Source: Polytrichum commune
Taxonomy: Eukaryota; Streptophyta; Polytrichopsida; Polytrichales; Polytrichaceae
Direction: 5' to 3'
Assembly (NCBI GenBank): GCA_950295325.1
Contig: OX485806.1
Location: 36,146,001 to 36,210,000 of the forward strand
Length of the DNA: 64,000 bases
Translations under genes and position numbers: made by a program
Notes under the pieces: model-generated
The model's database searches: none
The model's input: the letters and a program-made list of their open reading frames with translations, nothing else
What the model was told of the DNA's origin: nothing
Part shown: piece by piece, positions 18,953-46,704 of the stretch
How the letters are laid out: each line of letters starts with the position of its first letter
How positions within the stretch are numbered: the stretch's first letter is position 1

Positions 18953-19432
18953 GAATACTCAAAGCCATCCCCTTCAGCTACAGCACCGAGCATCATGTCC
19001 CCATGTATCAACCTACTAGTCTAATAACTCTCGACCCCCAAGGCCAACGTACTAACCCTATCTAGTTCAAAGCTAGCCCCCTTGGCTTTGTGGGCCTCCC
19101 TCCTTGGCAGCAAATTGAACCTTGGATACTAACTCGTATTTTCAACATTTATTGCCACTAAGATAACTAAAACTTACTATCAAATACAAGTAATTTATTA
19201 TAAATGATATCTTCCATTAACGTATATGGGTCTTAAATGGTTACAATAATGCATGCCAAATGGTGAGAATGTAGTTCAACAAAAGTCTACAAACTAACCT
19301 AATATATCTTCTAGAGTTTAGGGTTTATTTTGTGATTAAGGTACAACTAGAGTTTAGGATGACATACTTTCCAATCAATTGCACATACAAGGTTGGAAAC
19401 ATACCTTGACCATCGGAGTGAGGCAATAACTT

Positions 19433-20277
19433 TTGCAGTGGGTTTTATCACAGTATGATGATGCTCCATTGAAAGACTTAGGGAAGGTGGTGCTCAACAT
19501 TAGACATGCTATCGTGTGCAGTTATGAAGTATGGAGTGAGTTGGATGCACAAATAGTCAATAATTGTTGGAGGATGGTGCGTATACTACTTGCAACACGG
19601 AATGATCATTTTGCCCTAGTTGATGAAAGAGAGAAGAATATAATGCAAGAAGAATCAGATGAACTTGGTGCTTTGATTTCAAAATTTCGATTGGGTGATG
19701 AAGACATGTCAATCGAGACTTACATTTAGATGGAAATGGAAGAGATTACTGAGCTAGAGTTGAGTACTAATGAGTTGGTGGATGATGCTTTGGGAATCAA
19801 TTATGCACAAGGCTTTGATCTTGATGTTGATCTACATTTAGTAGATGTGGATGATGCTCCACCTATAGTATATTTTAGTGATGCTAAACGTCATGCATCA
19901 TTGTTGTCTAATTTCTTATTAGACAACTCTTTACATTTTGGTGTTAATAAAGTTATTAGTTTTCAAAAGCTAGTAGGAAATTTAGATAAGATGACAATTG
20001 CTAACTTGGGTAGGTAACACGGTCATAGATCTTTGAACTCTTATTTCAAGAGTTCTTGAGAATATTAGTACTTGTTGGAGCTATAATTTATTATTATATA
20101 CAATATATATTGCTCAAACTCGTTGTATATATTTTAAAGCTCATATTGCTTATGTTTTTGTATTCCCTCGATAGTACGACAATTTTACGAGATTTGTCAT
20201 ATTAACGAGAAGATGACACCTCGATAATACGACATTTTTGTGTTTCCCAAACGTGTCATACTAAAGAGGGAGAACAT
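19433..20277 (+). pseudogene. Pogo-like transposase C-terminal remnant with 3' end
   Basis: Two adjacent frames (19433-19729 and 19730-20017) read through what was probably one ORF. The first has IVNNCWRMVRIL, fitting the C-terminal part of DDE_1 transposases (pogo/Tigger type: I.NCWR...I), followed by acidic residues. The second has DAKRHASLLSNFLLDNSLHF and FQKLVGNLDKMTIANLGR. An in-frame stop separates them. The non-coding 3' end repeats TACGACA-type motifs and stops at AGAGGGAGAACAT before a TA (20278-20279). The same block recurs at 39898-40292. The N-terminal DNA-binding and catalytic parts are missing. Confidence 0.65.
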
Positions 20278-20389
20278 TAGGCTCCTACAATGGATATAGT
20301 TAAACAGCACTTTGCTACTACTTTTATGCGTTTGACTAAAAACTTTATGGTTTTAGTATACCCGGAGCATATTTCCCATATACTTGATT

Positions 20390-32999: not shown

Positions 33000-33278
33000 A
33001 AAAATGTTTATATCAATTGACATACATTTTCGTTCTTGAAAACCTCACATGACACTTTGGATTTGAAGTTGAACGTCAAATGAAATTCATCAAACATACA
33101 CACTAATCAGGGTGGTGGCTATCGGCTGCCACGGCCAAGGGAGCCTGCAAAAAGTATTTTAAAACAATTGGGGGCAGTGTGTATGCTTAACAAATGTCAT
33201 TTGACTTTCAACTACAAATCCAAAGTGTCATGTGACGTTTTCAAAAACAACAATCAATGTCAATTGACATCTACATTT
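33000..33278. repeat. Inverted repeat beside hAT right arm
   Basis: Segments 33000-33105 and 33175-33278 are reverse complements with some mismatches; ACATGACACTTTGGATTTG is the core. The 70-base tip (GGTGGTGGCTATCGGCTGCC...GCCTGCAAAAAGTATTTTAA) is related in reverse orientation to 41750-41820. Confidence 0.75.
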
Positions 33279-33494
33279 TTTTTTTGAAATGTCACCTCAA
33301 TGTCACATGCCTAGAAGTATGTGTCATTTCAATCTCATGTGTCAATTGAGGTGTGGTTTTTTCCCTCACAAGTCGCACACACTATATGTCTAATTCTAAA
33401 TTGAGTGTGTCGATTGATGTGCATTTTTTCTTGTGCAAGTTTTAGCGTGTCAAATGTCACAAACTTGTAAATACTTTGTAAAAAATACACCATG

Positions 33495-34196
33495 ATTGGG
33501 GCCCCGAGTAGTGTTGATTCTTGAAGGTTGCAGTCCACAAGGTTGACGCTGATATTGCAAGAGCATGCTCACATGTTGTACACCAAATGCTAACATAAAG
33601 GGGTCCTACTAAATCACGTAACAATATTTTAGAGGGGACTAGTAGTCGCACTACATGTAACACACATTCACTTTATATGATAAGATTTATAAATTGTGGA
33701 TTCCATGATCAGAATCAATATCTTATAATACACAAGGCTTTACATAGAAGTAGTGGAAGCTAAAGTTTTATTTGGTCAGAGATTGTAATGTATTTATAGT
33801 TGTTTTTCTTATGGAGGAGTTGAAAGCGAAGCCACAATATACCCAAGTTATTTTGACCCAAGAGGCCTTTCCGGGTCCTGTTGTTATCATTACTAATAGG
33901 CTAACTACTATTATAATGATAACATGCCTAATTGCTATTGTAATGATAACAAGTGGTCATGCTCTAAGCCTTGAAAGCTCCATTTCCGATTGGAGTAGAA
34001 AATAGATGTTTCTACCAATACAAGAGGGACCAACCTTGAAACCAAGCTCCTCAAGATGAGGCACATGTTAAGGCCAAACCTCTTTTACCTGGGCCCACAA
34101 ACTAGGTTCCGTAACTAGTATTTTTGAACATGCATGGCCTTTCACATGTCATTTTGTCATCAATTTGTCATCAATTTGTCATCAAATTTTTTTTCA
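33495..34196. other. Unclassified stretch
   Basis: An ATTGCTATTGTAATGATAAC-type short repeat lies near 33905-33950 and repeated ATCAATTTGTC units at 34155-34185. No gene was seen. Confidence 0.3.
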
Positions 34197-35417: not shown

Positions 35418-36449
35418 CTAAAATCGCTCTCAGGGTTTGGGAGATTTTTGAGCTCAACCAGCTAAAATTTGCCCCTTCACAACTTCTACCGGTTTTTCCA
35501 CGATTTAACCAGTTGCAAACTTGTTGCCATTGATTTGGTGCGGCCAATATCCCATATTTTTTTTTCAAGTGCCGGCTAATTTCCTCTCCATTATAATGAC
35601 AACTCGCCAAAAACTTGGGCATTGATAAGTAAGCCAATTTCCAATGTAGAAAAATTATATCTACAAACAATATACACCATTCAACAACAACGTCCAAAGA
35701 ACATATCAACATACAACAATAATATGTAATGATATCAACATCCAACAACAATTATCAACAATTCATTACATACAAGAAACAACAACAATGATCAACAATT
35801 TATCCATAGCAAGAGTTGAATCTGAAATAACCCATCAACATGTTGATGGCCATGGATTTATTCTTCTATCATACCTAGGTCTTAAAACCTCATATTAGAT
35901 TTGAGGCCATAACATGAGAAAAGAGTAACCTAACATACCATACTATATACAAAAATGAAATTCATCAACTGTTAGAGTCAAAATCAACAGTATCATCTTC
36001 ACCTTCAAGAGGAAAACACCCTAAAAGGTATCTATGTGGATGTGAAAACAACCATCTAAACTTTGTAGAGTTCCTTCGTAAAGCTATGGCTTCCATTAGT
36101 ACGTTATCAAGATCACCACAAAGATCTTTCATGGACACACGCACAATACATTTTAAACGCTAGCCTTCAACAATGAAGCAAAAGCTTCGCCTGTCTGCCA
36201 TTCACCAAATCGCTACAAGCCTACAATGAACACATAACCTAAACCCTAGAACTAGATGATATCCGGCCCTAGATGAATCAAACCGGATGAACTCCACCTA
36301 TTTCACAATTTGTCTAAGTAAAAATCCTCCTCCTCAAAATGGTTGCTGGTTGAAATCCGTTATTTTTTTTAAAAGCATTGGTTTCACATCCTCCACTTTC
36401 CCAATTCAACTGGACTTTTCACAAAACCAACCGGCCGTCATTACACTAA
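35418..36449. other. Unclassified stretch
   Basis: CAACAA-rich DNA at 35680-35800. No coding frame with recognisable content. Confidence 0.3.
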
Positions 36450-37249
36450 TAGGCCCCCCACACATACTGGTGGTGGGCGGCAGTGAACGGGCGAACACCA
36501 TTCACTGCCACCAGTATGTGTGGGCGTGTTCGCCTGTACCAAAGGGAGGCTGGACATGTAATTGGCTTGAGTCTGAGAAATAACCAAGGTGAAGTTTAAT
36601 CCGTCGAGCGGTTAGGTACAGATGAACAAGTTGAGTTTGAGAATTAACCAGGTTGAGGTTCGAGAACTAGTGGTTAGGCATAGATGAACGAGTTGAGTTT
36701 GAGATTTAACAAATTTCAAGTTCGAGAATTGGCAGTTAGGTATAATGAACGAGTTTAGTTTGAGATTTAACCAAGTTGAAGTTCGAGATTTCAAGATAAT
36801 TACCAATCATTTTCGGTGAATCTATGGAATATGTCTAATATAAATAAAAGAAATACCAAAAGATGGCAACATGTCAAACTAAACTTACTAAACAAAGCTT
36901 ACTATGTGGAATTACACAATGCTATATCTATTTACTGTACATCTCATGTTTTACCAACAAATGTTAAATTGATAGTTTGGACATTATAAAACATTGACAA
37001 CTTTACTTGGTAGAATTTTATTTCATTAGTAAAAGGATATAGCACCTTGTAAATCCAAATAGTAAGTCACACTAAATATCATATTTGACTAATTGTCCAT
37101 GGAGATTTTTTTGGCATGATCGGTTAAATTTCTATTCTTTCCAAGTCCGATTGGTTACATGTTGCATGAACTTTCGGTTTTTTCTTTATTAATTCGAGGT
37201 ATGTACTCTATATTCCTCTAGAACGCTTGATAAGTTTGGTGATGTCTTG

Positions 37250-37620
37250 TTCAACCGGCTTATTTCTCGAATTCACCGGTTCATATTTGTGACTTAAGGT
37301 ACAAAATTATTGTGAAGTCTCGAACTTCAAGCAGGTTATTTCTCAAACTCACCAGTTCATCTTTGTAACTTAAGGTACAAAATTATCGTGAAGTCTCGAA
37401 GTGCAATTGGGTTATTTCTCGAACTCACCATTTCATCTTTGTAACTTAAAGTACAAAATTATCGTGAAGTCTCGAACTTCAAGTGGGTTATTTCTCAAAC
37501 TCACCGGTTCATCTTTGTAACTTAAGGTACCAAATTATCGTCGAGTCTCGAACTTCAACCGGGTTATTTCTCAAAATCAACTAGTGCATCTCTTTGTAAC
37601 TTTAGGTACCAAATTCTCCT
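37250..37620 (-). repeat. Subterminal tandem repeat, about five 77-bp units
   Basis: Each unit holds GAAGTCTCGAACTTCAA, GGTTATTTCTCAAACTCACC, TTCATCTTTGTAACTTAAGG and TACAAAATTATC. The opposite arm at 36550-36800 carries four related shorter units. Confidence 0.85.
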
Positions 37621-37769
37621 AAGAGCGTCCCCACCAGACCGGGTATGGGGCATGCCAACGCCAAAAATGGGGCATCCCGGGTTCTTAGGTGGCGGTACCT
37701 ACATAAATTAAGCCCTACCAATGTCTGGTCCCCCATAATTTAGAACCGGCCCGGGTATGGTAAAGGGGA

Positions 37770-38945
37770 GACGTTAAAGTTCCCCCCACAAACTTATAGG
37801 GGAGGTAGATTCGGGCAGGGGCAGCCGCCTGGCCAAAAATTCCAGATTTTCTGGACCCGACCGTAAATTGCTGCCCACCTGCCTGATTTCGGAAAAACCA
37901 TTGCCCTTGCATTCTTGAAGGCCACTTATCCACAAATCCCATATTGAGTGCACTTCACCTTCAAGGTCCAAAATCCAATATGTATGTTCACTTCCATTGA
38001 GTAAATAAGCAATTGACTCAGATTTCATTTTCAAAACGAAACCGTCAATAAAGCATGTAAATAACTAGGAAGTCAAAAATATTATAAAACCCTCATTAGC
38101 ACCGAGGTTATGATTTTTGTGACTTGCCATTGCAAGGGTCTTTGTCATTCTAAAATGGAAATAAATTTAGTGGTTTAAAATTAGTATGTTAAATATTATA
38201 GTCTTTTAGTTAATACTTTCTACTTTCACAAAGTTTTCATACGCATTTAAACTAATTAAGTGCGATTGAATGTAATTAAGTCTAGTTAATTCAGATTAAT
38301 CCTAATTAATGATAAAATATACTTACTAGAATTAATCATAATTAATTCTAATAAGTCTATTTTATTATTAATAAGGCTTAATTCATTTGGTAAGCATACA
38401 TTCTGATTTAATTGGGCTTAATTAGTATTAACCAGGATTAATTAGACTTAAATACATTGAATTACACAACTAGTTTAAATTCATATTAATTCTTTGTGAA
38501 AGTAGAAGGTATTAACTCGATTATAATACCTAACATACTAAAAATAAAACAGAAAAATTATGTTCCATATTAAGAATGACAAAGACCCTTTCAATGGCAA
38601 GTCACAAAAATCATAACCTCAGTGCTAATGAGGGTTTTATAATATTTTTGACTTCCAAGTGATTTCCATACTTTAATGGCCGTTTCACTTTGGAAATGAA
38701 ATCCGAGTCAATTGCTTATTTACTCAATGGAAGTGAAGATATATATTGGATTTTGGACCTTGAAGGTGAAGTGCACTCAATATGGGATTTGTGGATAAGT
38801 GGCCTTCAAGAATGCAAGGGCAATGCTTTTTTCGAAATCGGGCGGGCGGGCAACAGCTTACGGTTGGGTCCAAAAAATCTGGAATTTATGGCCCGGCAGC
38901 TGCCCCTACCTGAATCTACCTCCTCTATAAGTTTGTGGGGGGCAC
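37770..38945. repeat. 1.2-kb near-palindrome
   Basis: The two halves meet near 38360 in a TTAATTA-rich centre. Landmarks mirrored across it include CACAAAGTTTTCATACGC / AATTCTTTGTGAAAGTAG, AAGGGTCTTTGTCATTCT / AGAATGACAAAGACCCTT and AACTTATAGGGGAGGTAGAT / ATCTACCTCCTCTATAAGTT. Identity appears lower in the centre and higher in the outer 500 bases. Confidence 0.85.
37774..38034 (-). CDS. Mirrored hypothetical ORF, left arm (86 aa)
   Basis: This minus-strand frame matches the plus-strand frame at 38690-38950 at 70 of 86 residues with no indel. It contains SESIAYLLNGSE, YWILDLEGEVHSIWDLWISG and ARRLPLPEST. I recognise no domain. Outside the arms nothing supports a gene, so it may be open by chance and mirrored because the DNA arms are mirrored. 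The lack of stops and frameshifts in both arms despite 16 residue changes is the only hint of constraint. Confidence 0.3.
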   Translation of the reverse strand: MKMKSESIAYLLNGSEHTYWILDLEGEVHSIWDLWISGLQECKGNGFSEIRQVGSNLRSGPENLEFLARRLPLPESTSPISLWGEL

Positions 38946-38950
38946 TTTAA
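38690..38950 (+). CDS. Mirrored hypothetical ORF, right arm (86 aa)
   Basis: This is the partner of 37774-38034. The start ATG, length and stop are at equivalent positions. Differences cluster in the segment NAFFEIGRAGNSLRLGPK. Function unknown; it may be only a mirrored by-product of the palindrome. Confidence 0.3.
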   Translation: MEMKSESIAYLLNGSEDIYWILDLEGEVHSIWDLWISGLQECKGNAFFEIGRAGNSLRLGPKNLEFMARQLPLPESTSSISLWGAL

Positions 38951-39528
38951 CGTCCCCCTATAATAAAGACCTTCCCCCGCCATAAATGGTTCATATAACG
39001 GCCCGCCAAGAGATTACTTTAATATCAGATACTCCGATATCCTACTTTATCCCATGTCAGATAATAGGTGTCGTTGTCTTAGGGCCGCTTTACACTACGG
39101 TGGAGAAGTGCACCGGTCAGTCAAGAATTTTCGCCCAAGACATGGTTGTCTGAGGCGGGGGATGGTATGCCGGAGAAGATGAAAAGACAATAAAATAATG
39201 CTTGAAGAAGTCTTGACCGGCCGTAGTGTAACCACCTAGAGGAGAAGTGTATTGGACAAACTTCACCAAGAGGAGAAGTCCACCGTACTACTTCACAAAA
39301 CGGTCAAAGCCGGCCATAGTAGAAACCTTACCCCCTAAATGACCATTGTATTGATATTTAAACAATTTAATTGATAAAAAAATAAAATGTATATGGCAAT
39401 GTTTTAGAACTTCTTTCATGACAATAATTTATTTGAAAATGTTCCACCTCTATAATACATCCAAATTAAGGTAAATAAGTAGGTAACATTATCTTCTTAT
39501 TGATTCCTAAAGAAATAACATGTTGGTA

Positions 39529-40292
39529 TAGTCCAACCTTGTTAATACGACACTCGTTTATACGACACCCTCAATATTACGACACATTTTTACGAGACGA
39601 AAATTTTTAGTTCAAAACTCCCTCTTTTATTTGACTACAACACTCGATAGTGCAATATATAGAATCTCCGTTTTGTCATATTATAGAGGTAGTTAATGCT
39701 AGAATTCCTTTCATCTGCAATGTACATCTAAAATACATCCATCTTCACTTGGGAACCACTTGGGAACTTCACTTATTATTGGGAACTTAATGATAATTAG
39801 GGTTACTAGTGTAGGATGGACATGGTTAGGGTGAGGGTGGCCTCATGCCTAGTATGTTGCCTTGTACACGGGTGATATAGTATCACCAGTATCTTGATGC
39901 TAAACGTCATGCATCATTGTAGTCTAGTTTCTTATTAGAGAACTCTTTATATTTTGGTATTAATGAAATGATTAGTTTCCAAAAGTTAGATGGGAATTTA
40001 GATAAGATGAGAGTTGCTAACTTGGGTAGGCAACACCAAAGATCTTTGGACTCTTATTTGAAGAGTTCTTGAGAATATTTGTAATTGTTTGGAGTTATAA
40101 GTTATTATTTCATACCATCTATATTGCTTAAACTCGTTGTATATATTTTTAAGCTCATATTACTTATGTTTTCATATTCCCTCAATAATATGACAACTTT
40201 ACGTCATTTTTCATATTAATGAGAAGACGATAACTCAATAATACGACTTTTTTTGGATTACCCAAAAATGTCATACTAAAGAGGGAGAAAAA
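39529..40292 (+). mobile_element. Pogo-like element with internal deletion
   Basis: It starts TAGTCCAACCTTGTTAATAC just after TA (39527-39528), with TACGACAC motifs repeated subterminally. It ends AGAGGGAGAAAAA before TA (40293-40294). The 3' half (39898-40292) is homologous to 19880-20277 and encodes the transposase tail (DAKRHASL, FQKLDGNLDKM, QHQRSLDSYLKSS) up to a stop near 40071. The catalytic region is deleted. It is nested in Harbinger-like element 2. Confidence 0.75.
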
Positions 40293-40309
40293 TAATGCAA
40301 AGATTTCTC

Positions 40310-40690
40310 TCGGGCTATCACCCCCCCCTTACCTTCATAACCACGTGCGATAAAAGTTTGCTACCCTATATTATATGCCATATATAATTTAATTTGTTTT
40401 TCTACACATGCATAATCATTGATAATATCTTTTGTATATTTTTTGAAATTTTTAGGCATCTTAATTTTTGTAGTAAAATTTTCAAGTCAATTTTGCGCCA
40501 ATATTTTATTTTTATTTTTAAAAATCATCAAATTTGGTTATTATTTGTTTACTATGTAATAGATACTGTGTATATTTACTCATGAAAAAAAATTGATAAA
40601 ATTTTGACCCATTTTGGTGACGCTATATGTAAAAAATAGATTTGTTTTATCGCACGTGGTGTTCAACTTGATAATGAAGTGCATCCCCCC
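40310..40690 (+). repeat. 380-bp dispersed repeat, copy 1
   Basis: It is homologous to 53525-53904: CATAACCACGTG, GATAAAAGTTTGCTACCCTA, TTTTGACCCATTTTGGTGA, ATCGCACGTGGTGTTCAACT. ACCACGTGCGATAAAA at the left faces ATCGCACGTGGT at the right, giving subterminal inverted motifs. This is MITE-like. Confidence 0.75.
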
Positions 40691-41297
40691 AAGAGATTTC
40701 TCTAAGGAAGAAATATATTATTGAAGTTGGAGTTCTCCGGAGGCCAAGTTTCTTGTCTGAGGCTTTGAGGTTGCCCAAGAAACTTGACCTCCGCAGAACT
40801 CCCCTTGGAAAAAGTGTGGCCACGTTGCCAACCATGTCATTATTTCATCCATGTACAAAGTTCTCCACCAAAGGACTCTTGGCCGTAGTGTAAACCACCA
40901 CCGGACAAGAGTGTCACTCTCGGCCAATCAAATTTCATAATTCCCCTAGAATTCTTGACCGGAGGACTTCTCCACCGTAGTGTAAAGCGGCCCTTATTGA
41001 TTGCTTCCTAATTATACCAGGGGTATGCCTAGGCTTTGGTGGGCTTTGACTCAAGATGAATTGCTGCTCAAGATGAAGGGCTCCCCAAAGGTATAAAATA
41101 TTATATACTCTATTTGGCGTGTACCCGATCTGGTGGAGATGCTCTAAAGTCTCAAACTCCAAGCGGATTATTTCTCAAAATCAACCAATTCATGTGAAAC
41201 TAACCGCCGATTCTCCTTGGTTCTCGTGCACACATACTGGTGGCAATGAACGGAGTATGCCCGTTCACTGCTGCCCACCACCAGTATGTGTGGGCGG

Positions 41298-41705
41298 GTC
41301 AGGCACCACGGGCCTTGGCTTGGTGGTTAGGGCTCATGACCCCCAATGAGGAGGTTGTGGGTTCCATTCCCCATGCTGGCGTGGTGCTCACCACCTTAGT
41401 CCACCCAACTATGGTGGGGGGTCCTTGGACCTTGTTGTATGGGTACCTCAAAGCCCTTTGGGGGGATACCATGTCCGGTATCTTCAAGGCACTAGTGGCT
41501 AGCTAGGAACTAGTATGGTGTGTCACTATAGTGCCCATCCTCGAAAGGGGAGAGTAGTATTGCCTCAATGTCCCCTTGTCCGGTGGGCATCGGGTCATTG
41601 ACATTACGAACGGACACTTTATTCACGCCGGCCCCTTCAAAGGGACCGGAGTTTCTATCTATCTGGGCGGGTCTCCAAATAATTTTTTTTTTAAAAAAAG
41701 AAAAA
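41298..41705 (+). mobile_element. tRNA-derived SINE with 15-bp target-site duplication
   Basis: The 408-bp element starts GTCAGGCACCACGGG. TGGCTTGGTGG (about 41325-41335) fits a Pol III A box, and GGTTCCATTCC (about 41361-41371) fits a B box, at tRNA-like spacing. The 3' end is A-rich (AAAAAAAGAAAAA) after a T tract. A perfect duplication AGTATGTGTGGGCGG flanks it (41283-41297 and 41706-41720). The insertion lies in the terminal hairpin of the foldback element. The body beyond the tRNA-like head is long for a plant SINE. Confidence 0.85.
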
Positions 41706-41739
41706 AGTATGTGTGGGCGGCCTATATAAGACAGCCTAT

Positions 41740-41830
41740 ATAAGACAATGGAAAATCTAGGATTTAAAATACTTTCTGCAGGCTCCCCCCGCCGCGGCAG
41801 CCTGCAGCCGCCACCCTGATTGATTCTGTC
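41740..41830 (-). repeat. Short repeat shared with 33107-33177
   Basis: In reverse orientation it reads CAGGGTGGCGGCTGCAGGCT, then GGGAGCCTGCAGAAAGTATT and TTAAA, closely matching the hairpin tip at 33.1 kb. A CAGGG end is typical of hAT ends, but no partner end is visible. Confidence 0.55.
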
Positions 41831-42087
41831 TGCGGTACCGCACCCCTGCCTTTCAGGAGCAGCCGTTCGGCTTCTGCCAAGTGTCATTGTCCACCTTGTA
41901 AGAACATCATTGGCTGGTTTCCGAGTCATTCAGGCGACCAGTCAGGTTCCTAATATTGGATCTGCATAGAATAGGGGGAGCAGCCGTTGTTTATTGTAGA
42001 TTTTCAGAAAATACAAGGGGGGTTTCAGAAACTACCAGAGGTTCACAATTTGGGGGGCTTGAAACCCCCCTGCGAACCAGTGATCGG

Positions 42088-42298
42088 GGAGATTTTTGGG
42101 CATAAATCGGTTGAGATCCTAGTGTTTGCAAGTCCAGCCGGCTACATGTTGACATCCTCGGTTTTCCTTTATAAAAGTGGGGTATGTTCTATAAATTCCT
42201 CTAAAATGATTGGTAATTTTCATGTAGTCTTGAACTTCAACCGGTTATTTCTCCAACTCAACTAGTTTATCTGTAACTAACTGCCGGTTCTCCTTGAT
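42088..42298 (-). repeat. GGTT-rich dispersed repeat, reverse copy
   Basis: Reverse orientation, from GGAGATTTTTGGGCATAAAT through CCGGCTACATGTTGACATCC to CTGTAACTAACTGCCGGTTC and TCC. It spans the whole single arm seen at 30536-30750. Confidence 0.75.
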
Positions 42299-42325
42299 CA
42301 TAGCTTCGAACCTGTCACAAGCATT

Positions 42326-44131: not shown

Positions 44132-46704
44132 CGATGTTAATGCAGATCGCCAATTCGACGAACCACTCTGCGATTCTTTCAAGACACTAAGATTTCTGCG
44201 CAGGTAGTGGGTTAACCTAACATGCGTGTCCATGGAGTAGTTTGTGAGCACTAGATTGGCTGCACTTTTTTGACGCGCTGTGATGTATGCCAGACCTCTC
44301 TGTGCGGTGGTCCGTGGTGCGCACGACGGCCCCAGCACAGATTTCTCGCACCAACACTCAACTGTCGAGGTTGCGAGTTCACAAACACAAAACCTCGCTC
44401 CTATCAACTGTGCGAGGGGGGACGCTAACCCTCCCGACAAGGAAATTCAGGTTTCCTCACACCCATTTACCTGGGGACCATTACATGGGGAAAGGAGGTG
44501 GATGTGTTGATGAACTTGTAACTGAGAGCGATGTTAATGCAGATCGCCAATTCGACGAACCACTCTGCGATTCTTTCAAGACACTAAGGTTTCTGCGCAG
44601 GTAGTGGGTTAACCTAACATGCGTGTCCATGGAGTAGTTTGTGAGCACTAGATTGGCTGCACTTTTTTGACGCGCTGTGATGTATGCCAGACCTCTCTGT
44701 GCGTTGGTCCGTGGTGCGCACGACGGCCCCAGCACAGATTTCTCGCACCAACACTCAACTGTCGAGGTTGCGAGTCCACAAACACAAAACCTCGCTCCTA
44801 TCAACTGTGCGAGGGGGGACGCTAACCCTCCCGACAAGGAAATTCAGGTTTCCTCACACCCATTTACCTGGGGACCATTACATGGGGAAAGGAGGTGGAT
44901 GTGTTGATGAACTTGTAACTGAGAGCGATGTTAATGCAGATCGCCAATTCGACGAACCACTCTGCGATTCTTTCAAGACACTAAGGTTTCTGCGCAGGTA
45001 GTGGGTTAACCTAACATGCGTGTCCATGGAGTAGTTTGTGAGCACTAGATTGGCTGCACTTTTTTGACGCGCTGTGATGTATGCCAGACCTCTCTGTGCG
45101 TTGGTCCGTGGTGCGCACGACGGCCCCAGCACAGATTTCTCGCACCAACACTCAACTGTCGAGGTTGCGAGTCCACAAACACAAAACCTCGCTCCTATCA
45201 ACTGTGCGAGGGGGGACGCTAACCCTCCCGACAAGGAAATTCAGGTTTCCTCACACCCATTTACCTGGGGACAATTACATGGGGAAAGGAGGTGGATGTG
45301 TTGATGAACTTGTAACTGAGAGCGATGTTAATGCAGATCGCCAATTCGAGGAACCACTCTGCGATTCTTCCAAGACACTAAGGTTTCTGCGCAGGTAGTG
45401 GGTTAACCTAACATGGGTGTCCATGGAGTAGTTTGTGAGCACTAGATTGGCTGCACTTTTTTGACGCGCTGTGATGTATGCCAGACCTCTCTGTGCGGTG
45501 GTCCGTGGTGCGCACGACGGCCCCAGCACAGATTTCTCGCACCACCACTCAACTGTCGAGGTTGCGAGTCCACAAACACAAAACCTCGCTCCTATCAACT
45601 GTGCGAGGGGGGACGCTAACCCTCCCAACAAGGAAATTCAGGTTTCCTCACACCCATTTACCTGGGGACAATTACATGGGGAAAGGAGGTGGATGTGTTG
45701 ATGAACTTGTAACTGAGAGCGATGTTAATGCAGATCGCCAATTCGACGAACCACTCTGCGATTCTTCCAAGACACTAAGGTTTGTGCGCAGGTAGTGGGT
45801 TAACCTAACATGCGTGTCCATGGAGTAGTTTGCGAGCACTAGATTGGCTGCACTTTTTTGACGCGCTGTGATGTATGCCAGACCTCTCTGTGCGGTGGTC
45901 CGTGGTGCGCACTACGGCCCCAGCACAGATTTCTCGCACCACCACTCAACTGTCGAGGTTGCGAGTCCACAAACACAAAACCTCGCTCCTATCAACTGTG
46001 CGAGGGGGGACGCTAACCCTCCCAACAAGGAAATTCAGGTTTCCTCACCCATTTACCTGGGGACAATTACATGGGGAAAGGAGGTGGATGTGTTGATGAA
46101 CTTGTAACTGAGAGCGATGTTAATGCAGATCGCCAATTCGACGAACCACTCTGCGATTCTTTCAAGACACTAAGATTTCTGCGCAGGTACTGGGTTAACC
46201 TTACATGCGTGTCCATGGAGTAGTTTGTGAGCACTAGATTGGCTGCACTTTTTTGACGCGCTGTGATGTATGCCAGACCTCTCTGTGCGTTGGTCCGTGG
46301 TGCGCACGACGGCCCCAGCACAGATTTCTCGCACCAACACTCAACTGTCGAGGTTGCGAGTCCACAAACACAAAACCTCGCTCCTATCAACTGTGCGAGG
46401 GGGGACGCTAACCCTCCCGACAAGGAAATTCAGGTTTCCTCACACCCATTTACCTGGGGACAATTACATGGGGAAAGGAGGTGGATGTGTTGATGAACTT
46501 GTAACTGAGAGCGATGTTAATGCAGATCGCCAATTCGACGAACCACTCTGCGATTCTTTCAAGACACTAAGATTTCTGCGCAGGTAGTGGGTTAACCTAA
46601 CATGCGTGTCCATGGAGTAGTTTGCGAGCACTAGATTGGCTGCACTTTTTTGACGCGCTGTGATGTATGCCAGTCCTCTCTGTGCGGTGGTCCGTGGTGC
46701 GCAC
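44132..46704 (+). repeat. 397-bp tandem array, about 6.5 copies
   Basis: Anchored on GATGTTAATGCAGATCGCC, units start at 44132, 44529, 44926, 45323, 45720, 46115 and 46512 (partial). Five units are 397 bases and one is 395, through loss of two bases in CACACCC. Copies differ at only a handful of sites (GCGGTGG/GCGTTGG, CACCAACAC/CACCACCAC). Because 397 is not a multiple of three, the open frames of 105-118 codons on both strands restart in each monomer and do not form one protein. I treat them as repeat artefacts. Confidence 0.95.

What the first reader, a model, noticed from the sequence alone, without database searches (positions are those of the whole stretch)
36452..41722. Four-deep nest of DNA transposons with a SINE in the outer hairpin
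The foldback-like element (TA flanks) holds Harbinger-like element 1 (TAA duplication at 37620 and 41145). That holds Harbinger-like element 2 (TTA duplication at 39079 and 40994), which holds a deleted pogo-like element (TA at 39527 and 40293). A SINE with a 15-bp duplication sits in the right terminal hairpin of the outermost element. Each layer's duplication is directly visible, so insertion order can be read without dating.
Basis: partly seen in the sequence, partly recalled or inferred. Interest (0 to 1): 0.85.

Follow-up and report, generated by a model that had tools for sequence, protein, structure and literature searches.

The report
Nested DNA transposons in a plant-like genome
A stack of short jumping elements lies inside one another here, but the innermost one arrived already packed inside its carrier, and the outermost "element" is two broken ones fused together, so the layers do not simply record the order of events.

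Summary
The duplications named in the finding are real, and genomic copies confirm most borders. Harb1 is a Tourist-like MITE of about 0.4 kb with TAA/TTA duplications (11 of 13 aligned copies). It sits in an element, "Y", whose fetched copies lack it (11 of 11). Harb2 sits in Harb1, whose copies lack it (13 of 14 loci uninterrupted; the 14th lacks that half). The SINE has the claimed 15-bp duplication.

Three things change the reading. (1) The pogo-like piece is not a fourth local insertion. It is built into the Harb2 family: a 22-base pattern across the junction has 151 matches, control 0, and no pogo-free Harb2 was found among the 39 other places scored. (2) The outermost "foldback" is a fusion of two truncated, oppositely oriented elements, X and Y, found nowhere else among the places scored; its flanks do not come from one site. 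(3) Two insertions were missed: a 1.2-kb palindrome in Harb1 and a 384-bp MITE built into Harb2.

The static nest is real and richer than stated, but depth is not local insertion order. It is a well-resolved example of a known kind.

The parts
36013..36449 (+). F: repeated MITE-like family, right part; its last ~24 bp are missing here
   Evidence: 35 of 40 matches of w36300-36900 are F copies ending at w36448-36451. 8 of these 35 fetched (7 distinct, L027 and L028 are identical); all go on with an ATACCGGTTCT-like sequence absent here. Left border not determined.
36452..36879 (+). X: left end of an X element (TA before it, hairpin end), truncated on its right
   Evidence: copies L029-L032
36880..36892 (.). 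13-bp filler at the X/Y join, resembling the first bases of the adjoining Y part
   Evidence: join absent in the other places scored
36893..37622 (+). Y: internal part of a Y element with 76-bp subrepeats; left part missing (335-508 bp in the 10 copies where the left end was found, mostly ~380)
37620..37622 (+). TAA, left duplication of Harb1
37623..41144 (+). Harb1: ~0.4-kb Tourist-like MITE, interrupted by two inserts (own pieces 37623-37764, 38968-39078, 40997-41144)
   Evidence: copies L018, L020, L051-L060
37756..37764 (+). TATGGTAAA, left duplication of the palindrome
   Evidence: uninterrupted site reads TATAGTAAA in 11 of 14 Harb1 loci
37765..38958 (.).
   Evidence: self-complementary at 84% over 1.2 kb; family copies; 9-bp repeats matching at 8/9 or better in 9 of 16 copies, three of these shifted by eye
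38959..38967 (+). TATAATAAA, right duplication of the palindrome
39079..39081 (+). TTA, left duplication of Harb2
39082..40993 (+). Harb2: composite PIF/Harbinger-like non-autonomous element carrying two other elements
   Evidence: 28 of 39 other scored places full length at 88-94%
39529..40292 (+). pogo-like internal-deletion derivative, built into the Harb2 family
   Evidence: matches both ends of the L101 element, one frame of which hits DDE_1 at 2.8e-10; junction pattern 151 times
40310..40693 (+). second captured MITE, between 9-bp direct repeats AGATTTCTC at 40301-40309 and 40694-40702
   Evidence: solo relative at w53515-53906
40994..40996 (+). TTA, right duplication of Harb2
41145..41147 (+). 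TAA, right duplication of Harb1
41148..41722 (+). Y: right end with terminal hairpin, interrupted by the SINE
41283..41297 (+). left SINE duplication AGTATGTGTGGGCGG
41298..41705 (+). SINE with T/A-rich tail
   Evidence: 39 of 39 other scored places match about w41301-41664 at 97-99%
41706..41720 (+). right SINE duplication AGTATGTGTGGGCGG
   Evidence: site uninterrupted in 10 of 11 Y loci, L003 diverges there

Best explanation
This is a cluster of non-autonomous DNA transposons plus one SINE, with this likely history. An F element received an X element, and a separate Y element lay elsewhere. A break-and-repair event deleted X's right part, F's end and Y's left part, and joined X to Y with a short filler (inferred). 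Harb1 inserted into Y. The MULE-like palindrome and the already composite Harb2 each inserted into Harb1. A SINE inserted into Y's terminal hairpin. Harb2 had captured a deleted pogo-like element and a second MITE in the ancestor of the copies seen, and moved with them as one unit, presumably by a PIF/Harbinger-type transposase supplied in trans. Shown: uninterrupted sites in copies, the shared Harb2/pogo junction, an X/Y join seen only here. Inferred: the deletion mechanism, the transposase that moved each layer, the relative ages.
For: Harb1 site uninterrupted in 11 of 11 Y loci. Palindrome site uninterrupted in 14 of 14 Harb1 loci and Harb2 site in 13 of 14, the 14th (L019) lacking that half. 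Harb1 has identical TAA or TTA flanks in 11 of 13 aligned copies; Harb2 has identical 3-bp flanks in 8 of 15. 39 of 39 other scored places for Harb2 span the pogo left border. A pogo-less joined query found only half-matches ending at that border, 39 of 39 others. The junction pattern has 151 matches, the window included, control 0. The 16 embedded pogo segments form one clade apart from 4 free ones (FastTree support 0.756 as read after rerooting). The window's pogo segment is no closer to consensus than its carrier: K2P 0.034 versus 0.028 and 0.017. X/Y join seen only here. X's right end is like Y's left end reversed, and that end type has no significant match in the window. F copies and three paralogs of the right flank carry adjoining sequence that is missing at this place.
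Against: Only the 40 best candidates of each whole-genome DNA search are scored, so a rare or diverged pogo-free Harb2, or a second copy of the X/Y fusion, could be missed. The 151 pattern matches were not each checked to lie in Harb2. 7 of 15 Harb2 copies lack matching 3-bp flanks. 10 of 11 Y loci read TGA, not TAA, at the Harb1 site; only L004 reads TAA. Divergence from consensus does not rank inner layers as nesting demands: the palindrome (0.057) looks older than Harb1 (0.036) that holds it, and the second MITE in the window's Harb2 (0.080) looks older than the rest of Harb2, so these distances are too rough for dating. No Harbinger element with these ends was found (16 loci looked at, of 150 scored). 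The deletion model for X/Y was not tested with reads or a second individual.
Confidence: 0.85

Rival explanations
1. One reading: four successive local insertions, pogo last, into one intact foldback element with TA duplications.
For: All duplications named are present, and the inner borders are real element borders.
Against: Pogo is at the same place in 39 of 39 other Harb2 places scored, with 151 junction matches. The outer left and right parts come from two subfamilies and the join was seen only here.
Confidence: 0.03
2. The outer X/Y chimera is a genuine mobile foldback formed by template switching during gap repair, which then inserted at the TA in F as one unit.
For: Both outer ends are TA-flanked and inverted to each other (69 nt, 90%). 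A short filler resembling adjacent Y sequence sits at the join, as template switching could leave.
Against: The sequence to the right is not the rest of F: 8 of 8 fetched F loci (7 distinct) have another continuation. The right flank is paralogous to segments that have other DNA upstream. No second copy among the places scored (0 of 39).
Confidence: 0.08
3. The X/Y join, and so the outer structure, is an assembly error between two repeat copies.
For: Both sides are repeats and the join was seen only once in the assembly. No reads were available here.
Against: The join has a 13-bp filler resembling adjoining sequence, which a collapsed repeat would not be expected to produce (inference).
Confidence: 0.04

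Closest known systems
Tourist / PIF-Harbinger MITEs and elements (Medicago MtPH families, PMC2213677, passages seen)
   Same: 3-bp target duplication, TIRs, deletion-derived copies; nested insertions and ~60-bp tandem repeats described there
   Different: Harb2 here amplified with two foreign elements inside; in the passages seen, nested insertions are described for single long elements
MER6 composite MITE carrying a V-SINE domain (PMC6887750, outline and abstract seen)
   Same: part of one mobile element inside a MITE, spread by the carrier
   Different: MER6 is mariner-derived in mammals with a SINE part; here a Harbinger-like carrier holds a pogo derivative and a 9-bp-repeat MITE in a plant-like genome
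pogo-like elements of plants (Lemi1/Emigrant, recalled)
   Same: TA duplication; related longer copies with a DDE_1 match
   Different: in the window it lies inside Harb2 as cargo; free relatives exist elsewhere
Mutator-like elements with long inverted repeats (recalled)
   Same: about 9-bp target duplications, arms of nearly 600 bp
   Different: no transposase link was tested
Foldback elements (recalled)
   Same: hairpin ends and subrepeats in X and Y
   Different: TA duplications in X and Y, rather than the 9 bp recalled for foldback elements
Nest-resolving annotation, REANNOTATE (PMC2672092, passages seen)
   Same: reads insertion order from nesting
   Different: here nesting level and local insertion order part ways

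Membership tests
PIF/Harbinger (Harb1) | 3-bp TWA target duplication | tested here: met
   11 of 13 aligned copies with identical TAA or TTA; L017 and L057 lack an intact right end
PIF/Harbinger (Harb2) | 3-bp TWA target duplication | tested here: inconclusive
   TTA in the window; identical 3 bp in 8 of 15 others, of which 5 are TAA/TTA and 3 are TCA/TGA; 7 of 15 do not match
PIF/Harbinger (Harb1, Harb2) | shares TIRs with an element encoding a DDE_Tnp_4 transposase | tested here: inconclusive
   PF13359 is abundant (150 of 150 scored matches over cut-off); only 4-mismatch (once 3-mismatch) TIR-like strings in the 16 loci fetched, each ~3.5 kb
pogo-like (39529-40292) | related longer elements encode a DDE_1 transposase | tested here: met
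   one frame of L101 hits PF03184 at 2.8e-10; the Harb2 segment matches both ends of that element at 85-88%
pogo-like (39529-40292) | TA target duplication | tested here: met
   TA on both sides in the window and around the L101 element
Mutator-like (37765-38958) | ~9-bp target duplication | tested here: met
   16 other copies: 6 match at 8/9 or 9/9 by script, 3 more (L037, L039, L077) at 9/9 after a 1-2 base shift by eye, L075 at 7/9; L033 and L078 no match; the script misplaced the ends of L034, L035, L079, L080 and of the window copy. Random pairs: 5 of 5000 reach 8, 0 reach 9. Window copy 7/9 by eye
Mutator-like (37765-38958) | shares ends with an element encoding a MULE transposase | not tested
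SINE | target duplication of variable length, tail, many copies | tested here: met
   15-bp duplication and T/A-rich tail; 39 other places at 97-99%
SINE | Pol III A and B boxes | tested here: inconclusive
   A- and B-box-like strings seen by eye near 41310-41370; consensus recalled, no program run
Foldback element (outer unit) | one unit with two ends of one element and a duplicated site | tested here: not met
   left end X, right end Y, flanks not from one site

The most novel reading that the evidence does not exclude
Harb2 is a composite MITE that carries the ends of three transposon types (Harbinger-like, pogo-like and a 9-bp-repeat MITE) and reached roughly 150 copies as one unit. The inner ends may still bind their own transposases, giving the family extra chances of mobilisation or of excision repair.
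Probability: 0.1. Interest if true: 0.55.

Novelty: new member of a known kind. Interest (0 to 1): 0.33.

Why it matters
Nests are used to order transposon activity. This locus shows, with copy evidence, two ways the simple reading can fail: an inner element that arrived as cargo, and an outer element made by fusion. It also offers a composite family for asking whether internal foreign ends affect a MITE's mobility.

Tried and rejected
A pogo-less Harb2 was sought with a joined query; none among the 39 other places scored. The paralogs L081 and L082 were fetched as possible empty sites for the outer unit; they show that upstream sequence is missing at this place but hold no clean empty site. 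Order by divergence was tried; it fits Y oldest and SINE youngest but not the order of the inner layers. X as the host of Y, with w42073-42303 as X's other half, was rejected: that stretch is a dispersed repeat and X's right terminus has no match there. Pfam on two window pogo frames and two palindrome frames gave nothing above cut-off, and a PDB search of one of these frames gave nothing below E 0.69. Harb1/Harb2 ends were not convincingly found in 16 DDE_Tnp_4 loci. Paper searches gave few relevant papers; one on MITE Tracker was seen in passages (PMC6171319). Jiang and Wessler 2001 on nested MITEs is recalled, not seen.

Rows dropped before counts: L019 was left out of the Harb1 alignment because it holds only the left half (it was included). 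L002 was left out of the Y alignment because it holds two copies (included). L037-L040 were left out of the palindrome distances. The alignments shown drop columns absent from the window, so they could not show insertions in copies; one search was run on the raw sequences to check the uninterrupted sites.
Full report
Setting. The window is part of contig C4 of an unnamed 408-Mb genome in 64 contigs, of which C1-C7 are 42-78 Mb long. Plant origin is inferred from the element types, not shown.

Check of the observation. The inverted repeats relied on are there: 69 nt at 90% for the outer hairpins and 39 nt at 95% for Harb2.

Harb1. Copies L018 and L020 run w37620-37765, then w38959-39081, then w40995 onward without interruption. 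On the raw sequence of 14 fetched loci, the palindrome site is uninterrupted in 14 and the Harb2 site in 13; the 14th, L019, lacks that half. Of 13 aligned copies, 11 have identical TAA or TTA flanks. A search with the left end scored 40 other places, none of which runs on into the palindrome.

The missed palindrome. w37765-38958 is self-complementary at 84% over 1.2 kb and has a family of copies. Of 16 fetched copies, 6 have 8- or 9-of-9 direct repeats at their ends by script and 3 more after a shift of one or two bases by eye; one has 7 of 9, and for the other 6 the script misplaced the ends (4) or found no match (2). Random pairs reached 8 in 5 of 5000 trials and 9 in none, without the shift by eye. 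The window copy, read by eye, has TATGGTAAA / TATAATAAA; the uninterrupted site reads TATAGTAAA in 11 of 14 Harb1 loci. This fits a Mutator-like element; no transposase link was tested.

Harb2 and its cargo. Of 39 other scored places, 28 match the whole element in one alignment at 88-94%, and 39 span the pogo left border; none runs on into Harb1. Because that query contains the pogo, I also searched with a pogo-less join: 39 of 39 other hits stop at the border. A 22-base pattern across the junction has 151 matches with up to two mismatches, the window included, against none for the reversed control; I did not check each match for its surroundings. The segment is an internal-deletion derivative: it matches the two ends of an element in L101 over 335 and 404 bp at 85-88%, and a reading frame of that element hits DDE_1 with E = 2.8e-10. 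The 16 embedded segments form one clade apart from 4 free ones, with moderate support (0.756). In the window copy the pogo segment (K2P 0.034) is no closer to consensus than the carrier's left (0.028) and right (0.017) parts. A second captured element lies at 40310-40693 between 9-bp repeats AGATTTCTC; similar repeats surround it in the Harb2 copies printed, and it has a solo relative at w53515-53906. In the window this second element is the most diverged part of Harb2 (0.080), which I cannot explain.

The outer unit. Loci with w36893-37620 continue directly into w41144-41297 in 11 of 11, so Harb1 is an insertion in this family, Y. The target reads TAA in L004 and TGA in the other 10. Y elements begin GCCTCCCCACACC and end in the hairpin GTATGTGTGGGCGGCC, with TA on both sides in 6 of 11 loci. 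The left part of the window's outer unit, w36452-36879, belongs to X (L029-L032), whose left end resembles Y's right end reversed and whose right end resembles Y's left end reversed. The window therefore has the same end type twice; the other end type has only short, non-significant matches in the window (best E 0.088). No other scored place joins X to Y: 0 of 40 and 0 of 39. A 13-bp filler at the join resembles the next bases of Y, as end-joining repair often leaves (recalled). Left of X lies F; the 8 fetched F loci (7 distinct) continue with about 24 bases that are missing right of Y. Right of Y, three paralogs, one of them inverted in this same window at 33 kb, share upstream sequence that is missing here. 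The simplest account is a deletion that fused two elements.

SINE. The duplication is exact. The site is uninterrupted in 10 of 11 Y loci. Identity to 39 of 39 other scored places is 97-99%, so the family looks young.

Ages. K2P to consensus: Y 0.067, palindrome 0.057, X 0.038 (four copies only), Harb2 0.038, Harb1 0.036, SINE 0.017. This agrees with Y oldest and SINE youngest. It disagrees with nesting for the palindrome versus Harb1, so I do not use it for the inner order.

Known background. Nested and composite MITEs are known. Passages of PMC2213677 describe nested insertions in Medicago Harbinger elements. The abstract of PMC6887750 describes a MITE that carried a SINE domain. Passages of PMC2672092 use nesting to order insertions. 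I saw no paper on this family in seven searches, which cover only openly licensed papers and did not use this family's sequence.

Verdict. The nest is real, richer than described and partly misread. It is a new example of a known kind.

Noticed in passing
window 44132-46704: Tandem array of a ~397-bp unit, about 6.5 copies at about 98% identity.
   Followed up: no
window 19428-20280: 3' part of a longer pogo-like element with short open frames; 39 of 39 other main places scored match only from w19428 or further right, so the window copy seems cut there.
   Followed up: partly
window 42074-42307: Dispersed ~230-bp repeat with relatives at w30532, w8327 and w906; apparently absent from paralog L082.
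   Followed up: partly
window 33105-33898: Inverted paralog of the right flank; further paralogs L081 and L082 lie about 77 kb and 154 kb from that flank on C4.
   Followed up: partly
window 37774-38064 (-) and 38663-38950 (+): Both arms of the palindrome hold a similar ~95-aa open frame; no Pfam match above cut-off.
   Followed up: partly
window 40310-40693: The second MITE in the window's Harb2 is unusually diverged from the family (K2P 0.080, other copies' mean 0.057).
   Followed up: no
window 41720-41747: GCCTATATAAGACA occurs twice in tandem across the right end of Y.
   Followed up: no
L002: Two Y elements tail to tail a few bases apart, showing that such elements do land next to each other.
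   Followed up: no
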